IMG/VR virus record: IMGVR_UViG_3300032954_000058
Coordinates: 1-29,911 of that record
Strand: one strand, 5' to 3'
DNA length: 29,911 bases
Origin: a virus
The stretch's first letter is position 1; the number at the start of each line of letters is the position of its first letter. Shown in pieces: positions 2,087-25,461 of this stretch. The notes under the pieces were generated by a model. That model did not search any database. It saw nothing but the letters and a program-made list of their open reading frames with translations, and was not told the origin of the DNA. The translations under genes were made by a program, and so were the position numbers.

Positions 2087-2341
2087 ATGATTCATCCTAC
2101 AATTCACCTCAACGGCACAAGCCGCGAAACTCTTATCTCCGAGTATCGCGAAGCCTACGATGCCCTAAACCTCGCACAACAAGCACTGTCTAAAGTAACA
2201 GTGCACGCGCGTGACTACTATCCACAAGGCGATGAGGCTTTTAAACAGGCAAAAGACGAACATATAGCGCGAGTTCTCAAACTTGCCGAAGTAAACAGTG
2301 ATCTCATTGACCTTATTCTCAAACTCGTTGAACCAACATGA
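2087..2341 (+). CDS. Conserved phage protein, HLNGTS...DYYPQG type (84 aa)
   Basis: The product begins MIHPTIHLNGTSRETL and has RDYYPQGDEAFKQAKDEH in the middle and a helical, Leu-rich C-terminus. This combination is one I recognise from many phage and prophage genomes as a conserved protein of unknown function, probably a helical bundle. The frame is open from an ATG at 2042, but the family normally begins at the MIHPT sequence, so I choose 2087. The 15 extra codons at 2042 overlap a recurring non-coding motif (ATGCTTGCCGCCAAAG). Confidence 0.65.
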   Translation: MIHPTIHLNGTSRETLISEYREAYDALNLAQQALSKVTVHARDYYPQGDEAFKQAKDEHIARVLKLAEVNSDLIDLILKLVEPT

Positions 2342-2352
2342 AAGCCAAAACT

Positions 2353-2502
2353 ATGAATCAAAATCTTTACCTCTGCATTTACAAAACAAAGAAGCTCGAA
2401 ATCAGAGCATCTTCTGCACTGCAAGCCCGACAACTTGCAGCACAAATCTTCAAGGCCAATTCCCTTGACGAAGTAACAGCTTCACTCAAAACCACAGGAT
2501 AA
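2353..2502 (+). CDS. Small conserved phage protein, YKxKxxEixAxSAxxA type (49 aa)
   Basis: A 49-residue ORF from ATG 2353 to TAA 2502. Its sequence, with YLCIYKTKKLEIRA, then ALQARQLAAQIFKA and a C-terminal DEVTASLK, matches a pattern I know from very small phage proteins: a beta hairpin, a helix and a final strand. It fills the gap exactly between its neighbours, with 11 bp upstream and 6 bp downstream. Function unknown. Confidence 0.6.
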   Translation: MNQNLYLCIYKTKKLEIRASSALQARQLAAQIFKANSLDEVTASLKTTG

Positions 2503-2508
2503 ACTCTC

Positions 2509-2709
2509 ATGACCGAACCTTCTATCTCCTGCCACAGATTCCAGAGCATGATTCGATCTTTCCATTGCATCGAAGGATTTGAAATCCCGTGCCTCAGCCC
2601 TGAGCAACAAAGCCAATTCGTGCGTGATCCCATCAACTTCTTCCTTAAATGCGAAGATCAAACTGCTGAATTTATCTTCTCCATAATCAAAAGTCGTCAA
2701 AACACTTAA
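2509..2709 (+). CDS. Hypothetical small phage protein (66 aa)
   Basis: A 66-aa protein with a C-terminal half reading FVRDPINFFLKCEDQTAEFIF. This resembles small phage proteins carrying a 'dPi.Ff...d.t...If' pattern, though I cannot attach a family name. It starts 6 bp after the previous stop. No membrane segment. Confidence 0.55.
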   Translation: MTEPSISCHRFQSMIRSFHCIEGFEIPCLSPEQQSQFVRDPINFFLKCEDQTAEFIFSIIKSRQNT

Positions 2710-2754
2710 TCCCCATGCTTACCGGCAACCACCCCTAACTACAGGAACAAACCA

Positions 2755-3015
2755 ATGCCCGAATCCGAAACTCAATTCGAATCCAAAAACAAACTCGCAG
2801 TAGGTGATAAAATTGTTTTCGTTGGCCCCTGACAATTTGGCATCAGCTTTATTCAACCCGGCGACAAAGGAGTAATCACCGAACTTCTCGAAATTAGTCC
2901 CACTTGCGGCCAGATATTCAAATTTAATTTTCTCGAACGTGGCCATATCGAAATTCACTACAATCTAAACGACTGGAATGGCTGCGAAAAATACTGGCTC
3001 AAAATCAAAGACTAG
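2755..3015 (+). pseudogene. SH3/KOW-like single-domain protein interrupted by in-frame TGA
   Basis: From ATG 2755 (leader ACAGGAACAAACCA) the frame encodes one copy of the domain that appears three times in the next gene: VGDKIVFVGP, then a TGA at 2830-2832, then QFGISFIQPGDKGVI and on to a TAG at 3013-3015. The frame beyond the TGA is intact for 60 codons and keeps the domain pattern, including the final aromatic YWLKI. Either this is a young nonsense mutation or the stop is read through; the context TGA-CAA-TTT is of the leaky UGA-C type. TGA is an ordinary stop elsewhere here, so wholesale recoding is unlikely. Confidence 0.6.
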
Positions 3016-3122
3016 GAATTAATACAATACCAGAAACAATTCACAACTTCTAGCGCAACTTCTCGCGCAACTTCTAGCGCAGCCCCTTGCGCAGCGAATT
3101 GTTTCTGGCGTTGCCTTAATTC
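3016..3122. repeat. Long imperfect hairpin with triplicated 12-bp loop repeat
   Basis: Left arm GAATTAA (3016-3022) plus CCAGAAACAATTC (3030-3042) pairs with GAATTGTTTCTGG (3096-3108) plus TTAATTC (3116-3122). Inside are three tandem 12-mers, AACTTCTAGCGC (3045-3056), AACTTCTCGCGC (3057-3068) and AACTTCTAGCGC (3069-3080). It fills the spacer between two related SH3/KOW-like genes. There is no T-run, so it is not an obvious terminator. Confidence 0.7.
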
Positions 3123-3159
3123 TTACTTCAAGCCCAAACTCAAACCTGGACTCAAACCA

Positions 3160-3999
3160 ATGCCCAAATTCAAAGTAGGCGACAAAATCCAATACATCGG
3201 CCCAGAACCTTGTTCAGTCTCCCTTATGGAAGAAGGCGATATTGCCGAAGTAATAAACATCGACCCAATAGAAAACTACTACCATGGCTATTTTAACTTT
3301 GAATTCAAATTCATCTTCACTCAAAATGAACTTCTTTGCAAAGCTGAATTTACCTGGCGCGGTGTTGAAAACTCTTGGCGACTTGTTCCTTCTGATACCA
3401 AATTCAGAGTCGGCGATATAATCAAATACGTCGGCCCGAAATCCATGGGAATAAATGGTCTAACAATCGGCGACACTGCTAAAGTAACAATCGCCTATCC
3501 TCCAGATTCTTTTTCAACCAAATTCGAAATAATTCAATTCAGATTTATTTCCACAAAAAGCGAATTTCTTAACGACGCAAATAATACTTGGAATTGTTAC
3601 GCCGACTCTTGGAGATTAGTCGAAATCTCAGACCAAATCCCAGACCAACAAATTGAACTCGAAAAAGCAATTGAAGCAATAAAAACCATTGAACTCGAAA
3701 AAGACCTCAAATCAAAGTACGAATCCAAATTCTTTCCTGGCGACATAATCAAATGGAAAGGCGGCAATCGTCTAGGTATAAATTTCCTAACAATTGGTGA
3801 TCTTGCAGAAGTAATCACCAACGACAAAAGCACTGGACTAATTTTCAAATTCTTCAACCCAAAACAAGGAGCTATAAATAATCATTGGCATGGAAATCAA
3901 AATGACTGGGAATTAGTCCCTGGACAAATCGCACCAAAAAAGACTCCAGACTTAACCAAACTAAAACCACAAACCATCATCCTCGACAGTTTAGACTAA
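3160..3999 (+). CDS. Three-repeat SH3/KOW-like domain protein (279 aa)
   Basis: Three homologous domains of about 70 residues begin near residues 5, 81 and 191. Each opens with F(K/R/F)xGDxIxYxG and has GDxAEV about 20 residues later, and each closes with a Trp-containing WRLV/WELV. The spacing and beta-rich character suggest small SH3-like barrels. The second and third are joined by a charged helical linker (residues about 155-185, ELEKAIEAIKTIELEKDL). The gene at 2755 is a one-domain relative, and the protein at 16933 has a similar VGDRIESIG start. Function unknown; tandem barrels of this kind often bind nucleic acid or protein, but that is only a possibility here. Confidence 0.6.
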   Translation: MPKFKVGDKIQYIGPEPCSVSLMEEGDIAEVINIDPIENYYHGYFNFEFKFIFTQNELLCKAEFTWRGVENSWRLVPSDTKFRVGDIIKYVGPKSMGINGLTIGDTAKVTIAYPPDSFSTKFEIIQFRFISTKSEFLNDANNTWNCYADSWRLVEISDQIPDQQIELEKAIEAIKTIELEKDLKSKYESKFFPGDIIKWKGGNRLGINFLTIGDLAEVITNDKSTGLIFKFFNPKQGAINNHWHGNQNDWELVPGQIAPKKTPDLTKLKPQTIILDSLD

Positions 4000-4021
4000 A
4001 CGAAAGGAAAAGGAAAACTCA

Positions 4022-7360: not shown

Positions 7361-7574
7361 CGAAAAACAGAAACCAGATTTCATTGCCAACGACTTTGCG
7401 GCGATAAACAGAGCTTTGAAAGAATTAAAACCCGAGACTAAAGCCAAGAAACAACCCTGTCCTGTCTGCAATGACGCAGGCTGGGTAGAAGTCTATTACA
7501 GCGGCTATCCCGTTGCTGTAACATGCCCTGAATGTCAGGAATCAACAGAGTATTTCAGCCATGATGGAATTTAA
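7353..7574 (+). CDS. Zinc-ribbon-type small protein (73 aa)
   Basis: A 73-aa protein with two CxxC knuckles, CPVCNDAGW and CPEC, separated by a short aromatic hairpin, the layout of a DnaJ-like or rubredoxin-like zinc ribbon. The start at 7353 lies within the end of the previous gene (ACGGAGAAAAGAATG gives a GGAG Shine-Dalgarno). Its end overlaps the macro-domain gene by 14 bp, so the three genes form a translationally coupled run. Confidence 0.6.
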   Translation: MSDEKQKPDFIANDFAAINRALKELKPETKAKKQPCPVCNDAGWVEVYYSGYPVAVTCPECQESTEYFSHDGI

Positions 7575-8025
7575 ATCAGGAAACATCCTCCTAGACAAAA
7601 GCGATGCAATAGTAAATACGGTCAACTGTGAAGGGATTTGCGGCGCAGGTTTGGCGAAAGAATTTAAACTAATGTATGAGGACAATTTTAGGGCCTATGC
7701 TGAGTTCTGCCGACAAAACAGATTGCGGCCCGGAAAAATCTGTCTCTATATTATCGAAAATTCTGCCCTCTATCCACCGCGCGCGATCTTCAATCTCGCA
7801 ACCAAGGCCAATTGGCAACAGCCGAGCAAAATGCAATGGATAAAAGCTGGCATTGCCGAAATCCACCTATTTGTTTTGACGCTCAATTACAAGTCGGTGG
7901 CAATTCCCGCGCTTGGCTGCAATAACGGCGGGCTAGACTGGGACAAAGTAAAATTGCTCTTAATCCAGCAATTCAAATCTGTCCCTTATGCAGTGACTAT
8001 CTACAACCCTCTAACTCAGGACTAA
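7561..8025 (+). CDS. Macro-domain protein (TARG1/DarG-like ADP-ribose hydrolase)
   Basis: A full-length single macro domain of 154 aa. The N-terminus FKSGNILLDKSDAIVNTVNC leads into EGICGAGLAKEFK, the ADP-ribose-binding loop with an invariant Asn and Gly-rich turn, and the C-terminal half has VAIPALGCNNGGLDW, the second ligand loop. Among macro domains the GxGLAxEF pattern and GCNNGGLDW best match the ALC1-like group, which includes TARG1 and DarG and can remove ADP-ribose from proteins or DNA. A phage copy could reverse host ADP-ribosylation defences or recycle ADP-ribose derivatives, which is inference. Two adjacent ATG codons at 7561 and 7564 could both serve. Confidence 0.8.
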   Translation: MMEFKSGNILLDKSDAIVNTVNCEGICGAGLAKEFKLMYEDNFRAYAEFCRQNRLRPGKICLYIIENSALYPPRAIFNLATKANWQQPSKMQWIKAGIAEIHLFVLTLNYKSVAIPALGCNNGGLDWDKVKLLLIQQFKSVPYAVTIYNPLTQD

Positions 8026-12636: not shown

Positions 12637-12768
12637 GTGATAGATAGCGTAGGATAGAGTTACTTCATTGCTAATGATGTGGCAAAGGTTCGAATCCTTT
12701 AACTGTCGCAAGCCAGTTTGGTGTAATGGTAGCACACAAAATAACTCTGCCGCTTGATCTTCTATCAC
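12637..12768 (+). ncRNA. Y RNA-like element 3 with permuted tRNA-like module
   Basis: Stem 1 is perfect: GTGATAGA (12637-12644) / TCTATCAC (12761-12768). Next is TAGCGTAGG, then stem 2 AGAGTTA (12656-12662) / TAACTCT (12742-12748), with 3' loop CTTGATCT. Within stem 2, in order: a small hairpin TCATT-GCT-AATGA, a canonical T-arm AAAGG-TTCGAAT-CCTTT (12684-12700), an acceptor-like hairpin AACTG (12701-12705) / CAGTT (12714-12718), and a textbook D-arm GTGTAATGGTAGCAC (12721-12735). That is exactly a tRNA opened at the anticodon stem. It starts 2 bp after the previous gene. Confidence 0.75.
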
Positions 12769-12907: not shown

Positions 12908-14266
12908 ATGAAACTCAATATCACTCGGAAGTCTGACCCGATTTTTACTGCCGAAGGTGGTAAGGCTGTGCATATTACTCCGACGCAGCAATTGCGTCGT
13001 TCTGTTATGTCCTGCCTGCTGTGGGAGGATGAATTTTATGAATCAGGAGAAGATATTACCACCCGAATCAAAAATCTGGTGCAAGTTGTGCCGCCGGTTG
13101 AAGTTGCCCGTATGGCAATCGAAGCACGTACTTCGCAGCACCTTCGCCATGTTCCTTTACTTCTTATGGCTTCTCTCGCCGGAGTTGCCGGTGGTACTTC
13201 TCTTGTGTCTGATACTCTGGCTCAGGTAATTCAGCGCGCTGATGAACTGGCCGAGTTTCTTGCAATCTATGCAAAGGTTAATGGCGTTGAGCCAAAAAAT
13301 CTAAAATCCAAACTTTCGAATCAGGTCCGCAAGGGCCTAGCGAAAGCATTTGTCAAATTCAATGCCTATAGTTTGGCAAAGTACAATCGCGATGGAGTAA
13401 TTACTCTGCGCGACGTGCTGTTTCTTTGCCACGCAAAGCCGCTGAATCCAGAGCAGGCCGCTGTTTGGGCAAAGCTCATCGACAATACTCTGGAATCGCC
13501 GGATACTTGGGAAGTTCAACTGTCTGCCGGTGCAAATAAGAAAGAGACTTTTGAGCGCCTAATCCGCGAAGGCAAGCTGGGATATTTGGCACTGCTGCGC
13601 AATTTGCGCAACATGACTCAGGCAGGTTGTGACTTTCAATTGGTCCGTGATGCAATTATTGCCCGCCAAAACGGTGCGGAAAAGGTTCTGCCTTTCCGTT
13701 ACATTGCCGCTGCAAACGCCGCGCCGCAATTTGCAAACGAACTCAATGTTTCGCTTTTGCAGACAGTTGCTGATTCGCCAGAACTCAAAGGCGAGACCGT
13801 AATTCTTGTCGATAATTCTGGTTCTATGTATCAGAAATTGTCGCAAAAGTCCGATCTCGAACGTATTGACGCTGCCGCTGCACTGGCGTCGATTATTCGC
13901 GGAAATCGTCGCGTCTTTAGCTTTGCCTGGGGTATGCAAGAAGTTGCACCGTATCCAGGGCTTGCAGGTGTTACTGCGATCAAGAACACACCGTCCGGTG
14001 GGACGCGGCTATTTGAGTCGATTGAACAGATTAATAGCACAATCCCGTATGAACGTATTATTGTGATTACGGACGAACAGGCTTTTGGCTATGGCCAGAG
14101 CGGTTGTCCGAAGCCGCTGCCGGGAACTAAAGGCTATATGATTAACGTCGCTAGTGCCAAAAATGGCGTCGGCTATGGCGAATGGAATCATATTGACGGA
14201 TTTTCGGAAAACGTCATCCGTTGGATTCTGGCTCTCGAAGAAGAAACTGCTGGCGGGACTGTTTAA
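12908..14266 (+). CDS. rsr: Ro60/Rsr homologue (TROVE + vWA domain)
   Basis: A 452-aa protein with the architecture of Ro60. The N-terminal TROVE/HEAT-repeat region (about 1-290) begins with QQLRRSVMSCLLWEDEFYE and includes EARTSQHLRHVPLLLM, typical of the family. It is followed by a von Willebrand A domain with an intact MIDAS, DNSGS at residues 302-306, and an ITDEQ segment. Ro binds Y RNAs and misfolded RNA ends; bacterial Rsr works with PNPase or other nucleases in RNA decay and maturation. It is slightly shorter than vertebrate Ro60 (about 540 aa). Start supported by GCAGGAAAACC. The four Y RNA-like elements lie directly upstream. Confidence 0.9.
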   Translation: MKLNITRKSDPIFTAEGGKAVHITPTQQLRRSVMSCLLWEDEFYESGEDITTRIKNLVQVVPPVEVARMAIEARTSQHLRHVPLLLMASLAGVAGGTSLVSDTLAQVIQRADELAEFLAIYAKVNGVEPKNLKSKLSNQVRKGLAKAFVKFNAYSLAKYNRDGVITLRDVLFLCHAKPLNPEQAAVWAKLIDNTLESPDTWEVQLSAGANKKETFERLIREGKLGYLALLRNLRNMTQAGCDFQLVRDAIIARQNGAEKVLPFRYIAAANAAPQFANELNVSLLQTVADSPELKGETVILVDNSGSMYQKLSQKSDLERIDAAAALASIIRGNRRVFSFAWGMQEVAPYPGLAGVTAIKNTPSGGTRLFESIEQINSTIPYERIIVITDEQAFGYGQSGCPKPLPGTKGYMINVASAKNGVGYGEWNHIDGFSENVIRWILALEEETAGGTV

Positions 14267-15665: not shown

Positions 15666-15705
15666 GCAGAGACTAATTTCTTTCTGCAGAGACTAATTTC
15701 TTTCT
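15666..15705. repeat. Perfect tandem 20-bp duplication
   Basis: Two identical 20-mers, GCAGAGACTAATTTCTTTCT, at 15666-15685 and 15686-15705, in the leader of the next gene. Being identical they look recent, and slippage here could alter the spacing of the leader. Confidence 0.85.
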
Positions 15706-15715
15706 GGAGCTAACT

Positions 15716-16219
15716 ATGAACATCGAACGTATGGAACAAATAGTCCGGGTTTTGCATGAAGTCAGTGCAAAGCACAAACGCTTTAGCCTTTCCACATGGC
15801 ATATGGATGGACCGTGTGGAACAACTTGTTGTGCTATCGGTTGGGCAGCCGAAGACTCTTGGCATCAGGCGCAGGGACTTGGCAATTGCTTTGTTGCCGA
15901 CTATCATACTTTTCCTGTCGGTATGCCAGTCTTTACTAACGCCGAAGGAATTGAACTTTCCGGCTTTGCAGCCGCTGCCGAATACCTGGACATTACTTAC
16001 GAAATGACGCAGGAACTATTCTCGGTCGTTTACTACAAACCGGCTTATGGATTTTCGGAAATCCGGCCCGAAGACGTAATCGCCAAGATCAATAAATATC
16101 TTCTGGCCGAAAAGGCCAAGGCAAAAGCAAAGCCAGAGCCGAAAAACGAAGATATTTTTATCTTTCCCCGAGCCGAAATCGTCCCACAACCGCCGATTTA
16201 TGTGGATGAATTGGTTTAA
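15716..16219 (+). CDS. CGTTCCAIG-motif phage protein, copy 3 (167 aa)
   Basis: A dispersed paralogue of the pair at 8030-8801. It starts MNIERMEQIVRVL like copy 2 and has CGTTCCAIGWAAEDS in the Cys region, a form (CGTxxCxIGWA) common in phages. It is longer because of a C-terminal extension rich in KAKAK and PQPP. ATG 15716 follows CTGGAGCTAACT, a strong GGAG Shine-Dalgarno. Function unknown. Confidence 0.65.
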   Translation: MNIERMEQIVRVLHEVSAKHKRFSLSTWHMDGPCGTTCCAIGWAAEDSWHQAQGLGNCFVADYHTFPVGMPVFTNAEGIELSGFAAAAEYLDITYEMTQELFSVVYYKPAYGFSEIRPEDVIAKINKYLLAEKAKAKAKPEPKNEDIFIFPRAEIVPQPPIYVDELV

Positions 16220-16943: not shown

Positions 16944-17190
16944 TGAAATAACACTTTTTAAACTCTATCCCAGAAAACCTCAAGTTGGCGATAGAATAGA
17001 ATCAATTGGCAACAGTAATTCTGAATTTTCCTTCTTTGAAGGTGATTCGTTCTGTTTTGGTAAGACGTTTGTAATTTCTTTCAAAGAAATTCACTACAAT
17101 CCCGAAGACAACAGTTTTAGCATCGCCATGGAAAAGTCTTGCGTTGAATCTTGGTGGCGTAAAATAGCAGCCCTAATTTTGCAATGGTAA
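16933..17190 (+). CDS. Hypothetical SH3/KOW-like small protein (85 aa)
   Basis: The N-terminal KPQVGDRIESIGNSNSEFSF and central GKTFVISFKEIHY resemble the domain repeated in the 3160 gene (VGDxIxYxG), although the later GDxAEV is missing. It ends in WWRKIAALILQW, a hydrophobic tail. It overlaps both neighbours by a few bases, as part of a coupled run into the nuclease gene. Confidence 0.5.
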   Translation: MANNEITLFKLYPRKPQVGDRIESIGNSNSEFSFFEGDSFCFGKTFVISFKEIHYNPEDNSFSIAMEKSCVESWWRKIAALILQW

Positions 17191-20754: not shown

Positions 20755-20813
20755 CTTTAGCGAAGCTGCTAAAGCCTAATCTTAGGGGAAAGATTCAGTT
20801 CTTTCCCCTTTTT
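20755..20813 (+). terminator. Intrinsic terminator preceded by a second hairpin
   Basis: GGGGAAAGA (20785-20793) / TCTTTCCCC (20800-20808), a perfect 9-bp stem with loop TTCAGT, runs into TTTTT (20809-20813). Just upstream is another perfect hairpin CTTTAGC-GAAGCT-GCTAAAG (20755-20774). Together they separate the SSB operon from the HTH/IS110-like/array region. Confidence 0.85.
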
Positions 20814-20829: not shown

Positions 20830-21147
20830 ATGACTGTTTCTGACAAATATCAATACATTTCTTCTCTTCCTTGGAAAGAAAGAGTAAAAGAGTACGAGAA
20901 AATCCACCAAGAGTTCAAAGCAAAGGACTCTTCCTGGGCGGTTGTGGATACGGCACGAGAAATTGGACTAAGCAGTTTTTACTTAGGAAAAATCCTCTAT
21001 ATTGCCAACAATCTAACAAAGCCTGAACTACAGACTGCCAAAAATATAAATCACGCCTGGGTAAAACTTGAAAAAATGCGAAAAGTTGTCGCAGAAAAGA
21101 TGAACAAAAAGATCAAAACGATTACCGAAACCCTCTTAGACAATTAG
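20830..21147 (+). CDS. HTH protein, ParB/KorB-like (105 aa)
   Basis: A small basic protein. Residues about 36-62 read WAVVDTAREIGLSSFYLGKILYIANNL, a helix-turn-helix as in the KorB/ParB DNA-binding domain (D-T-A-x-E-I-G-x-S at helix one/turn). The C-terminus is Lys-rich (EKMRKVVAEKMNKKIKTI). It has its own Shine-Dalgarno (TAGGAGAGAAGTA) and lies right after a terminator, so it starts a new unit with the IS110-like gene 10 bp on. It is a candidate to bind the repeat array beyond that gene, which is an inference from position only. Confidence 0.6.
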   Translation: MTVSDKYQYISSLPWKERVKEYEKIHQEFKAKDSSWAVVDTAREIGLSSFYLGKILYIANNLTKPELQTAKNINHAWVKLEKMRKVVAEKMNKKIKTITETLLDN

Positions 21148-21157
21148 GAAAATCTCA

Positions 21158-21985
21158 ATGACTTCCGACACACTTGACCTGAATCCGATTCAGAAGCTGA
21201 ACAAAGACCTCAAAACTGCATCGGTGATGCTTTCCGACCATGAAGCAAGATTTTTGGTCGATGCCTACTATATTATGCAGGAAGATCGCAAGCGCAGCTA
21301 TAATCAGGAGCGCAGTCTTTCAACGGCTGGCGAACCGAATCAGGTAATCTCTTGGCTGGCTGCACAGAGTGCAGACCTGGAGAAGCAAATTCAAAAAGCC
21401 CTGGATACTTATACCAAGAATCATGTTATGGGTTCTTGGCTGAGGGAGATTTCTGGTATCGGGCCGGTTATTGCTGCTGGACTGTTGGCCCATATTGACA
21501 TTACAAAAGCGCCGACTGCAGGGCATATTTGGTCCTATGCCGGTATTGCAGGCACAAATCAGAAGAAGTGGGAAAAGGGTCAAAAGCGACCCTTTAACGC
21601 AGGGCTCAAAGTTTTGTGCTGGAAGGCCGGGCAGAGTTTTATGAAACTCTCGAACAATGACAAGTGCTTTTACGGCAAGGTTTACCGCGCCCGCAAAGAA
21701 TTGGAAGTTGCAAGAAATGAAGCCGGAGCCTTTGCGGAGCAGGCCGCCGAACGACTTTTGAAAGTCGGCAAAACTACCGAAGCCTATAAGTATTATTCTG
21801 TGGGCAAACTTCCGCCTGCACACATTGATGCCAGGGCAAGAAGGTATGCCGTGAAGCTGTTTCTTTCGCATTTTCATGGTGAATGGTATTTGCGGCATTA
21901 TGGCAAGCCTGCGCCGCTGCCGTACCCGATTGCGTTTCTGGACCATGCCCACTTCATTCCTGCACCTGGCAAACCCGTAACCTAA
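21158..21985 (+). CDS. IS110/IS116-type transposase C-terminal domain protein (275 aa)
   Basis: A 275-aa protein. An N-terminal helical region (1-92) is followed by a helix-hairpin-helix, LREISGIGPVIAAGLLAHID (95-114), then HIWSYAGIAG and KRPFNAGLKVLCWKAGQSF, the layout of the Transposase_20 domain of IS110/IS116/IS902 elements. The usual N-terminal DEDD (RuvC-like) domain is absent, and the serine expected after the YAG strand is not visible (TNQKKWEKG stands there). The C-terminus, ARARRYAVKLFLSHFHGEW then FIPAP, is shared with stand-alone phage proteins of this kind. Probably a domesticated nucleic-acid-binding protein rather than an active transposase. The repeat array begins 17 bp after its stop. 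Confidence 0.75.
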   Translation: MTSDTLDLNPIQKLNKDLKTASVMLSDHEARFLVDAYYIMQEDRKRSYNQERSLSTAGEPNQVISWLAAQSADLEKQIQKALDTYTKNHVMGSWLREISGIGPVIAAGLLAHIDITKAPTAGHIWSYAGIAGTNQKKWEKGQKRPFNAGLKVLCWKAGQSFMKLSNNDKCFYGKVYRARKELEVARNEAGAFAEQAAERLLKVGKTTEAYKYYSVGKLPPAHIDARARRYAVKLFLSHFHGEWYLRHYGKPAPLPYPIAFLDHAHFIPAPGKPVT

Positions 21986-22002
21986 TCTAAAGCTTTAAGC
22001 CA

Positions 22003-24313
22003 AAAGGCAAAATAGTACCACTACTTTGCGAGCGAGCCAAAATCACCGATAGAATCAACCTCTCTAAACGAATCAAATAGGGTGAAAGTACCAAATTCTA
22101 TGAATGAATCAAAACCTCCAAAAGTATCGTGCCACATGACTGAACCTAGAAATGCGATAGTATCTTGCAACGAGAGTGAGCCAAAACATGAGATAGCATC
22201 AGACATCCGGAGCGAGCCATATACACCGAAAGTACCAAACGTCAAGAGTGAGCCATATACAAGAGATAGAACCATGTATTGCGGGCGAACCAGAGTAACA
22301 GACAGAATCAGTGTAAGAGAGTGAACCAAATTTGAAGACAGCACCAGACCATTAGAGTGAACCAAACTTCCAGACAGAATCTTATCATAAGAGTGAATCA
22401 CAGGACTAAACAGCATCAGACAGAAAGAATGAATCATATTCTGCGACAGGATCATACCCTTAGACTGAATCAGAACTAGAAATAGAACCAATTCTTCAGA
22501 ATGAGTCTTGCTGGTGGAAAGTATCATATCTGCTAAACGAATCTAATCCAGCGACAGTACCAGTTCCCACGAATGAATCAAACAATCAGACAGTACCAGA
22601 CCCTCAGAATGAATCAAAAGATAAGACAGAATCATGTTGCGAGAATGAATCAAATGTTCGGACAGTATCACATTCCGAGAATGAATCAGAAGTTCAGACA
22701 GTACCTATACACACGAATGAATCATAGGATAAGACAGTGCCAAAAGCTTAGAATGAGTCAGCCTGAAGGATAGTATCCGACCGATAGAACGAATTAAAGC
22801 ACGAATCAAACCACGAAACAGTGCCAGAAATCGCGAATGAACCAGAACATGCGAAAGAATCTATAGAATTGAGTGAATCGAAACAAAAGATAGTATCACT
22901 GGTCATGAATGAGCCAAACTAAGAGATAGAATCAGGTGCTCAGGTCGAATCAAAACTTATGATAGTACCATCCCCGGTGAATGAACCAAAATTAAAGATA
23001 GAATCAAGGCTTGATGAGTGAACCACATGAAAAGACAGAATCACACCACCCATATAAGCCACTTAACAAGACAGAATCACATCGTTAGTGCGAGCCATTT
23101 AGCAAGATAGTATCACGCCACGAGTGCGAACCATATTTGCGGACAGAATCACTTCCTCCGTGTGAGCCATGTTTGACGAAAGAATCGTTTCTTCTGTGCG
23201 AGTCAGACAAGATAATAGAATCATTACGTCAGAACGAACCAACCGAAAGGATAGAATCACATTGCTCAAGTGAGTCAAACATGAAGATAGAATCTCTAGA
23301 TTAGAACGAGTCATAGAGAAAGATAGAATCAAGACATATGATCGAATCAACCTTCCAGACAGTATCAAGGCATATGAATGAATCAGACCACGAGATAGAA
23401 CCACTCCATATGACTGAATCTAGCCTTTGGACAGAACCAAATTTCAAGAATGAGTCAAATGATTTGACAGAATCATTGATAAGGAACGAATCAAGCCTCT
23501 AGATAGAACCAAATTCAGCAAATGAGCCAAACCAAAAGACAGCATCAGCGCACACGAGCGAATCAAATCCTTTAAATGAGCCAGACCAAAAAACAGTACC
23601 AATCACTCTGGGCGAGTCAAGCCACCCGATAGAATCTTTCCTAATGGACGAATCAAGCTTTAAGAAAGTACCACGTCTCTTGAATGAGTCAAGTCAAATG
23701 ACAGAACCAAGTTTAAAGAACGAACCATAAAGTGTGACAGAACCGTGTCATATAAGTGAATCAGGTAAAGCGATAGGACCACGGTATCCAAATGAATCAG
23801 ATCAATGGATAGTATCATCCGCTCAGAATGAATCAGGTCAAGAAACAGTACCATAGCTACCGAATGAATCAGATCTACTGAAAGTACCACCCAATCAGAA
23901 TGAATCAACTCAGAGGACAGAACCAATATTAGCAAATGAATCAAACGTTATGACAGTACCAGTAGAAGTGAATGAATCAATTTGAAGGATAGAACCATGA
24001 AACCTGACTGAATCAATATAAGAGACAGAACCAAATCTCCTGACTGAATCAGTTAAAAGGACAGTACCAAAACCTCCGACTGAATCGCAATGAATCAGTG
24101 CAAAGGATAGAATCATATCATCCGACTGAGCCCAAATGACAAATAGCATCAATTGGTTAGTGCGAATCAGATACTGCGACAGAATCATAAGAAATGAATG
24201 AATCAGAGCCACAGACAGAATCATGTGGAGTAAATGAACCAGAAGACAAGATAGAACCATCATCCGCGAGTGAGCCAAGGATTGCAAGAGTACCAACATC
24301 CCAAGAGCCTGAA
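22003..24313 (+). repeat. About 128 alternating 18-bp units (36-bp period), 8 variable + 10 conserved bases
   Basis: A head-to-tail, single-orientation array fills the whole gap between two genes. Each unit is 8 variable bases plus a conserved 10-mer. Type A core is GARYGARYCA (e.g. GAATGAATCA, 22571-22580); type B core is GAYAGWAYCA (e.g. GACAGTACCA, 22589-22598). A and B alternate from 22003 to the end. Exceptions found by hand: AA neighbours at 22779-22808 (second unit cut to 12 bases), 23548-23583, and 24070-24097 (second cut to 10); 19-base units at 22021, 22256 and 23007. Position 9 of the core is C in nearly every unit. Octamers are almost all different. No gene is supported: stops break all frames and the 19-mers shift phase. 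Confidence 0.95.
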
Positions 24314-24330: not shown

Positions 24331-25461
24331 ATGAAAATTCTATTCGTTGGTGAAGCATACGGCGTTTCAGAAGACATGTTTAAATCCCCATTCGTCGGCG
24401 CTGCCGGGCGCGAACTGGCGAATATGCTTTCAGATGCAGAAATTGTATCAAAACCCTACAAACCGTTTATGACTGAACTCGATATGATTAGATTTTGGAA
24501 AAATGCTGCGCAAGAGAATCAGATTCAGTTGACAAATGTGTTCTCTGAGCAGCCGCCCGACAATAATGTCGAGTTCTTTTTTGACGCCCGCAGCGCAGAT
24601 GTATGTAAGGAGATTCTGCCGCTAAAGCCAGGAAAGTACCTAAAGAAAAACTATGAATATTATTACAAAGCTTTGCATGATTTGATCTTACAGTCAAAAC
24701 CGAATCTAGTAGTCGCTCTCGGAGTTACTGCCGGGTGGGCTTTGACTGAAAGAGGAAATATATCTGAAATCCGAGGTACAGTTTTTTGGTCAGAAAAATT
24801 GAAGGCCAAAATCCTTTGCACCTGGCATCCTGCTGCTGTATTAAGGCAGTGGTCACTTCGCTCGATTACAATTGCAGACTTTATCAAGGCCCGGAGAGAG
24901 TGTGAGTTTCCTGAAATCCGAAAAATTACCCGCCGGATTTTGGTCGATCCGACACTGCAAGAAATCGAAGAATGGCTTGAAGTCCCTGCCACTGCCTACG
25001 CAGTAGATATTGAAACAGGTTATGCACTTTTCTCAAAGACAGAAATTGCTCGTCTCGCAAAGCAGGCGCCAGATATGCTGCGGCTTTTGGCAGGCCAAAT
25101 TTCGATGGTCGGCTTCGCTCGTAGTGCAACAGAGGCAATGGTTATACCGTTTATGGCGCGAAATGCGCCCGGAATGAACTATTGGCCGCACGTGCAAGAT
25201 GAAATCAGAGCGATGAAGCTACTGCAAAAGGGCTTGGCCTCGCCAATACCTAAGATTTTCCAGAATGGCCTTTTCGACATGAATCGACTTCTGTGTGCAG
25301 GACTTAGAACATATTGCGCCCGTGAGGATACGATGCTCAAGCATCATAGTTTGTTCCCCGAACTGCAAAAAGGTCTCGGGTTTTTGGGCAGTCTTTATAC
25401 TGATGAAACATCTTGGAAAGGAATGTTGAAGGAAGGCGAAAGCTTGAAGAAAGACAACTGA
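24331..25461 (+). CDS. Uracil-DNA glycosylase-like + 3'-5' exonuclease (first half of split DNA polymerase)
   Basis: Residues 1 to about 190 form a UDG-superfamily domain: VGEAYG at 6-11 (motif A), the strand VVALGVTAG, and TWHPAAVLRQ (motif B with HPA). It is followed by an exonuclease domain with ExoI YAVDIETG (D226, E228) and ExoII FQNGLFDMNRL (D316), then HSLFPELQKGLGFLGSLYTD leading toward ExoIII. The protein stops shortly after, at ...SLKKDN. The missing ExoIII (YNAMD) is at the start of the polymerase gene at 27458. UDG fused to a family A polymerase exonuclease occurs in phages; the split here is unusual. The start follows the repeat array by 17 bp with no strong Shine-Dalgarno. Confidence 0.8.
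   Translation: MKILFVGEAYGVSEDMFKSPFVGAAGRELANMLSDAEIVSKPYKPFMTELDMIRFWKNAAQENQIQLTNVFSEQPPDNNVEFFFDARSADVCKEILPLKPGKYLKKNYEYYYKALHDLILQSKPNLVVALGVTAGWALTERGNISEIRGTVFWSEKLKAKILCTWHPAAVLRQWSLRSITIADFIKARRECEFPEIRKITRRILVDPTLQEIEEWLEVPATAYAVDIETGYALFSKTEIARLAKQAPDMLRLLAGQISMVGFARSATEAMVIPFMARNAPGMNYWPHVQDEIRAMKLLQKGLASPIPKIFQNGLFDMNRLLCAGLRTYCAREDTMLKHHSLFPELQKGLGFLGSLYTDETSWKGMLKEGESLKKDN

What the first reader, a model, noticed from the sequence alone, without database searches (positions are those of the whole stretch)
22003..24313. Large non-coding array of two alternating 18-bp units with variable octamers
About 128 units of 18 bp run without a break over 2.3 kb. Each is an 8-base variable segment plus a 10-base conserved core, and two core types, GARYGARYCA and GAYAGWAYCA, alternate so strictly that I found only three A-A neighbours. 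Octamers are nearly all different, so the cores have been kept while the rest drifted or was replaced: strong selection on the core and on 18-base phasing. It is not CRISPR (10-base cores, 8-base spacers, two repeat types), not satellite (units too diverged), not coding. I know of no described phage element like it.
Basis: seen in the sequence. Interest (0 to 1): 0.96.

Follow-up and report, generated by a model that had tools for sequence, protein, structure and literature searches.

The report
Giant TIGR guide-RNA array with TasA
The repeats are a very long array of 63 paired guide sequences belonging to TIGR-Tas, an RNA-guided DNA-targeting system described in 2025, and the guide-binding protein (TasA) is encoded right next to it in this phage.

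Summary
The gene scores 212 bits against NCBIfam "TIGR-Tas system RNA-guided endonuclease" (cut-off 100). The only solved structures it matches are TasH and TasR, then IS110 transposases.

RNA-level proof: the 3' half of each edge repeat pairs with the 5' half of the next (position 7 with 4: 61 Watson-Crick + 1 G-U of 62), with no such signal within one repeat or at other lags. Relatives carry the same layout.

The array is non-coding RNA under selection, not a satellite or CRISPR, but a described kind of element. Targets were sought and not found. Relatives show whole-unit duplication, internal gain and loss, and half-unit swaps, which bears on how TIGR arrays grow.

The parts
20784..20809 (+). 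intrinsic-terminator-like hairpin upstream of the tasA gene pair; probable upstream border of the transcription unit
   Evidence: 10-bp stem followed by T-run; consensus match only
20830..21147 (+). 105-aa ORF just upstream of tasA, function unknown
   Evidence: ORF list; no Pfam or NCBIfam family above cut-off
21158..21985 (+). tasA: solo Nop-domain TIGR-associated protein, 275 aa, no nuclease domain recognised
   Evidence: NCBIfam NF052498 TIGR_Tas_endo 212.3 bits, cut-off 100; PDB sequence match TasR 9mty E=1e-18 and TasH E=2.8e-12; AF2 model pLDDT 84.1 whose top 11 Foldseek hits are all TasH/TasR; Pfam Transposase_20
21997..24308 (+). dual-repeat TIGR array, 63 edge-loop-edge units: edge repeat (GARYGARYCA) - spacer A (8 nt) - loop repeat (GAYAGWAYCA) - spacer B (8 nt)
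   Evidence: parse, cross-edge covariation, same layout beside tasA in relatives
21997..22002 (+). 5'-truncated edge repeat AAGCCA opening the first tigRNA
   Evidence: sequence; its GC pairs with GC of the next edge at 22030
24305..24308 (+). 3'-truncated edge repeat GAGC closing the last tigRNA
   Evidence: sequence; read by hand; pairs with GC of edge 24268. The automatic parse had placed this edge at 24307
22787..22808 (+). irregular joint: two edge repeats 12 bp apart
23556..23583 (+). irregular joint: two edge repeats 18 bp apart, loop repeat missing
24078..24097 (+). irregular joint: two edge repeats 10 bp apart, no spacer
24331..25461 (+). ORF beginning 22 bp after the array: family-4-like uracil-DNA glycosylase domain, with a match to phage DNA polymerase family phrog_17
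   Evidence: Pfam UDG 2e-11, phrog_17, TIGR00758 63 bits, below its cut-off. No terminator-like site between array and gene

Best explanation
This is a TIGR-TasA system. The array is transcribed on the + strand, probably together with tasA, as one long precursor. Each 36-nt unit runs from the middle of one edge repeat to the middle of the next (6 nt edge 3' half + 8 nt spacer A + 10 nt loop + 8 nt spacer B + 4 nt edge 5' half). Its ends are clamped by a two-base-pair stem formed between successive edge repeats. By the published mechanism the units are cut to tigRNAs, probably by a host RNase and in the presence of the Tas protein, and each is held by a Tas dimer. Spacer A then pairs with one DNA strand and spacer B with the other, adjacent, strand of a target (16 paired bases here). 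TasA has no nuclease, so I infer that it works as a multiplexed DNA-binding blocker or bender with 63 addresses, most likely against competing mobile elements or the host. Shown here: protein homology and fold, array anatomy, cross-edge RNA covariation, recurrence in relatives. Taken from published homologues: processing, DNA pairing rule. Inferred: transcription here, and the biological role (about 0.4 for blocking competing mobile elements, 0.3 for host loci). The confidence given is for the identification as TIGR-TasA.
For: NCBIfam TIGR-Tas equivalog model at twice its cut-off. Sequence profile hits TasR 9mty (1e-18) and TasH (2.8e-12), then IS621. AF2 model (pLDDT 84.1, pTM 0.82) finds only TasH/TasR structures at E<1e-3. 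tblastn finds Salicola phage CGphi29, the published SpTIGR/TasH phage, whose array parses as AAGCGAGCCA / AAGACAACCA with 8-nt spacers, the same layout. Covariation in the window: edge k position 7 with edge k+1 position 4 is 61 WC + 1 GU of 62, against 35.2 +- 3.4 shuffled; lags -1, 0 and +2 give no signal. Position 8 with 3 is 51 of 62. On 56 aligned 36-mers, AU 39, GC 17, none unpaired. Period-36 dual-repeat arrays lie beside tasA in nearly all of about 85 relatives. The array begins and ends with half edge repeats, as the paper describes.
Against: No RNA data, so expression and processing are not shown here. No rho-independent terminator follows the array, unlike the typical published array. 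Loop repeats lack the position 3-8 (box C/D) pair seen in many relatives (5 of 63 pair). No target was found in the own contig or in about 2.5 Mb of relatives' contigs.
Confidence: 0.95

Rival explanations
1. Functional rival: the TIGR-TasA RNP acts on the phage's own DNA (an aid to recombination, replication or genome organisation) rather than on other elements. It sits among Sak4-like annealing protein, Cas4-like nuclease and UDG/polymerase-like genes.
For: Neighbourhood: PDDEXK/Cas4-like 17184, Sak4-like 19083, UDG/polymerase-like 24331. The paper suggests DNA bending could aid integrases.
Against: No A+rc(B) site with fewer than 2 mismatches in the rest of the contig; cognate near-matches are not in excess (9/14/16 at up to 3 mismatches against 18/19/19 non-cognate). 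Neighbours of tasA are not conserved among relatives. The record is only 29.9 kb and may be a fragment.
Confidence: 0.12
2. Functional rival: the array is aimed at host chromosomal genes (host take-over by RNA-guided silencing).
For: Nuclease-free Tas; 63 guides would suit many loci; TasA loci also occur in bacterial contigs.
Against: Host unknown; not tested. No direct evidence.
Confidence: 0.3
3. A protein- or DNA-level repeat: array of DNA binding sites (partition or decoy sites) or a decaying 36-bp satellite, not guide RNA.
For: Exact phase and conserved cores; adjacent spacers are slightly more alike than distant ones (0.34-0.375 against 0.28-0.315).
Against: Two-sided base changes link different repeats only at lag +1 across 36 nt, which neither DNA sites nor decay predict; 122 of 123 octamers distinct; TIGR-Tas protein next door.
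Confidence: 0.02
4. Coding repeats on the minus strand (ORFs of 94-168 aa with ILS..LIHS repeats).
For: Open frames 22021-22527, 23099-23404, 23660-23944, 23910-24299 on the minus strand.
Against: The frames follow from stop-poor repeats and are not one continuous frame; arrays in relatives give equally accidental ORFs (cluster 1); RNA covariation.
Confidence: 0.01

Closest known systems
TIGR-Tas, dual-repeat type (Faure et al. 2025, PMC12045711), especially SpTIGR-TasH of Salicola phage CGphi29
   Same: Two alternating 10-nt repeats, 8-nt spacers, 36-nt unit, half edge repeats at both ends, array next to a Nop-domain protein gene, edge-stem covariation, phage host
   Different: No HNH domain (TasA, not TasH); 63 units instead of usually 5-15; strongly degenerate repeats with several edge-stem types mixed in one array; loop repeats mostly without the position 3-8 pair; no terminator after the array; UDG-like ORF follows at once
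IS110/IS621 bridge-RNA transposases
   Same: Nop-like RNA-binding domain (Pfam Transposase_20; Foldseek E about 0.02)
   Different: No DEDD catalytic domain recognised, long array instead of one bridge RNA; IS110 NCBIfam score 31 against a cut-off of 140
CRISPR arrays
   Same: Regular repeats with unique spacers adjacent to an RNA-binding protein gene
   Different: Two repeat types of 10 nt, 8-nt spacers, no cas genes with the array, turnover inside the array rather than at one end
Box C/D snoRNA / Nop5 RNPs
   Same: Nop-fold protein and box C/D-like anchors (family relation, from the paper)
   Different: Tandem array of very compact units, DNA targets in published TIGR systems; no kink-turn, L7 or fibrillarin partner (from the paper, not tested here)

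Membership tests
TIGR-Tas dual-repeat system | Nop-domain Tas protein adjacent to the array | tested here: met
   NF052498 212 bits, cut-off 100; PDB TasR/TasH; fold; gene ends 11 bp before the array
TIGR-Tas dual-repeat system | Two distinct alternating 8-12-nt repeats with about 8-9-nt spacers | tested here: met
   10-nt repeats, 8-nt spacers, strict alternation with three exceptions
TIGR-Tas dual-repeat system | 36-nt unit bounded in the middle of edge repeats, with covarying edge pair(s) between successive edges | tested here: met
TIGR-Tas dual-repeat system | Array begins with 5'-truncated and ends with 3'-truncated edge repeat | tested here: met
   AAGCCA at 21997-22002, GAGC at 24305-24308 (read by hand)
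TIGR-Tas dual-repeat system | Rho-independent terminator after the array (typical in the paper, not a defining requirement) | tested here: not met
   No terminator-like site between 24308 and the ORF at 24331
TIGR-Tas dual-repeat system | Box C (CCA-like) and box D motifs matched in edge and loop repeats | tested here: met
   Both repeats start GA and end YCA; the position 3-8 pair is present in edges but absent in most loops (5 of 63)
TIGR-Tas dual-repeat system | Transcription and processing to 36-nt tigRNAs | not testable with these tools
   No RNA data
TIGR-Tas dual-repeat system | Tandem-spacer DNA targeting | tested here: inconclusive
   Exact A+rc(B) sites in relatives not clearly above non-cognate pairs; none in the own contig
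TasA subtype | No HNH or RuvC nuclease domain | tested here: met
   275 aa, all-helical Nop-like model, no nuclease family in Pfam; NCBIfam gives only TIGR-Tas and IS110 models
IS110 transposon | DEDD transposase domain and IS110 family score | tested here: not met
   NF033542 31 bits against a cut-off of 140; only the C-terminal domain matches
CRISPR | One repeat type of 25-36 nt with spacers of similar size, cas genes | tested here: not met
   Array anatomy. Of six proteins scanned, the only Cas-like match is a weak Cas4-type nuclease at 17184, 4 kb away

The most novel reading that the evidence does not exclude
TIGR arrays grow without any adaptation machinery, by duplication of 36-bp units and by recombination inside the repeats that shuffles spacer A against spacer B. 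The 63-unit array here would be an extreme product: a nuclease-free, phage-borne guide library that silences or blocks dozens of sites in competitors or host.
Probability: 0.3. Interest if true: 0.7.

Novelty: new member of a known kind. Interest (0 to 1): 0.42.

Why it matters
TIGR-Tas is new (2025), and its natural targets and the way its arrays grow are stated open questions. This is the longest array among 76 parsed here. Its mixed edge-stem types give an unusually clean demonstration, from sequence alone, that the functional unit runs from mid-edge to mid-edge. The relatives collected here show whole-unit duplication, internal gain and loss, point drift and half-unit swaps, which makes the array-growth question testable.

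Tried and rejected
Targets: 871 distinct spacer pairs from the arrays were searched as A+rc(B), gap 0-2, in 1.6 Mb of relatives and then 0.9 Mb of new contigs. Pooled exact matches were 7 against about 3.5 for non-cognate pairs; with one mismatch there was no excess. Three exact gap-2 hits (L021 guides in L006 and in Salicola phage CGphi29; L035-group guide in L050) looked promising but were not replicated. A scan of all virus contigs for TGACTTACN{0,4}CCGRAAAC gave 23/8/10/10/11 hits for gaps 0-4, but 11/8/6/9/9 distinct contexts (counted by eye), so the gap-0 excess was clonal copies, and no other guide of that array matched those phages.

Codon-period test on substitutions between homologous guides: too few pairs.

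Conserved gene neighbours of tasA: none found; the commonest cluster was spurious ORFs inside arrays.

Close relatives of this phage through its UDG-like gene: only one locus at 37% identity.

Rfam has no match to the array.

Self-avoidance of targets in the own genome (39 near-matches against about 56 non-cognate over three gaps) is about 2 s.d. and not claimed.

The repeat parser over-extended into flanking genes in a few relatives (for example L034, L094), so pooled counts from that call are rough.

Full report
What was checked. The stretch 22003-24313 was read and parsed with position weight matrices and a chain model. It holds 128 full repeats, 65 of core A (GARYGARYCA) and 63 of core B (GAYAGWAYCA), alternating, with 8-base variable segments. 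122 of 123 octamers are distinct. Autocorrelation at 36 bp is high over the whole stretch and not elsewhere in the window.

What it is. The ORF directly upstream (21158-21985, 275 aa) matches NCBIfam NF052498, 'TIGR-Tas system RNA-guided endonuclease', at 212 bits with a cut-off of 100. A profile of seven relatives finds TasR (9mty, 1e-18) and TasH (2.8e-12) in the PDB, then IS621 at 6e-4. An AlphaFold2 model (pLDDT 84.1) has TasH and TasR chains as its top eleven Foldseek hits and IS110-family recombinases next. tblastn finds Salicola phage CGphi29, the phage of the published SpTIGR-TasH locus (PMC12045711). No nuclease domain was recognised, so the protein is of the TasA type. PMC12045711 describes arrays of two alternating 8-12-nt repeats with spacers of about 9 nt (8 in SpTIGR), units of 36 nt and half edge repeats at the ends. 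All of this is met here.

Which repeat is which. The array opens with AAGCCA (21997-22002) and closes with GAGC (24305-24308), the two halves of core A, so A is the edge repeat and B the loop repeat. The array therefore holds 63 edge-loop-edge units (the parser had put the last edge at 24307, corrected by eye).

RNA-level proof. If a tigRNA runs from mid-edge to mid-edge, the 3' half of edge k and the 5' half of edge k+1 should pair. Position 7 of edge k and position 4 of edge k+1 form 61 Watson-Crick and one G-U pair in 62 cases, against 35.2 +- 3.4 when shuffled. The same positions at lag -1, 0 and +2 give 35/62, 37/66 and 35/58. Positions 8 and 3 pair in 51 of 62 cases at lag +1. On 56 aligned 36-mers the first pair is A-U in 39 and G-C in 17, with no unpaired case; 33 cells have changes on both sides against 10.7 in shuffles. 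The half-stems AT/AT, AC/GT, GC/GC and GT/AC are mixed along the array. Neither a decaying satellite, nor DNA binding sites, nor coding repeats predict this. The paper reports an edge pair supported by covariation in TasR arrays; here two pairs are seen within one array. Aligned to TasR repeats (UG....CCA), positions 3-8 would be the box C/D pair and 4-7 the extra edge pair (my reading). Loop repeats here have the 3-8 pair in only 5 of 63 cases.

Relatives. 8 loci were found with the single protein and 80 with the alignment, out of 214 matches; 11 were found in bacterial and archaeal contigs, among them Halomonas sp. NO4 and Acidobacteriaceae bacterium KBS 96. Nearly all virus loci have a period-35-39 dual-repeat array beside tasA, most with edge GAGCGAGCCA or a compensated variant (GAGTGAACCA, GAATGAATCA, GATCGAGACA, GTGCGAGCCA) and 8-nt spacers. 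With a strict filter the window array has 53 units, the largest of 76; the next has 46 and the median is 13. Some arrays are cut by contig ends.

How arrays change. Related arrays share guides as whole A-loop-B units in nearly every comparison. In the group L029/L033/L036/L039 the first unit is shared by all four and the last by the three long ones, order is mostly kept, and units come and go in the middle, unlike the one-ended growth of CRISPR. Shared guides often carry one to three substitutions. Within arrays there are five exact whole-unit duplicates (L047, L071, L074, L078, L088), several diverged ones, and more than ten cases where one spacer recurs with a different partner. Chance would give about 0.35 of the last kind (2 x 11500 / 65536; my arithmetic). 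I infer unit duplication plus recombination in the repeats. The window array itself shows no duplicated unit.

Targets. The published rule implies a top strand of spacer A + reverse complement of spacer B, gap 0-2; the order was deduced from the stated overhang. No clear excess over non-cognate pairs was found in 1.6 Mb or in a further 0.9 Mb, nor in the own contig, where the best match has two mismatches. The target, and so the biological role, remains open; the host and co-sampled viromes were not available.

Mechanism, with status. Tas gene and array as one system: shown by homology and covariation. Common transcription from downstream of the terminator at 20784-20809, with no terminator after the array: inferred. 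Processing to 36-nt RNAs and pairing of the two spacers with opposite DNA strands: published for homologues, not tested here. Blocking or bending of target DNA without cleavage: inferred from the missing nuclease and suggested in the paper.

Verdict. It is a new, unusually large member of the TIGR-TasA kind.

Noticed in passing
window 12639-12709 and 12908-14266: A weak tRNA-Ser call (Rfam 29.6 bits, gathering 29) lies 200 bp upstream of a TROVE + VWA (Ro60-like) gene. It could be a tRNA-like Y RNA partner instead of a tRNA.
   Followed up: partly
window 7561-8025: Macro-domain protein matching DarG (the antitoxin of DarTG) at E=1e-51 over the macro domain only; no DarT was looked for.
   Followed up: no
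window 15666-15706: Perfect 20-bp tandem duplication GCAGAGACTAATTTCTTTCT just upstream of an ORF at 15716.
   Followed up: no
L074 11050-11200: One complete TIGR unit is duplicated exactly within the array (mid-edge to mid-edge), direct evidence of unit duplication.
   Followed up: yes
L071 array 2326-4009: 46-unit array in which several spacers recur with a different partner spacer, pointing to recombination within repeats.
   Followed up: partly
G008, G009, G011, G041 (L018, L021, L023, L087): tasA matches run across one or two stop codons of different kinds (TAG, TAA, TGA); they may be ends of the frame or broken genes.
   Followed up: no
cluster 3 (for example L035 3082-3519): A 145-aa protein family recurs near tasA in 17 loci at varied distance; not identified.
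   Followed up: no
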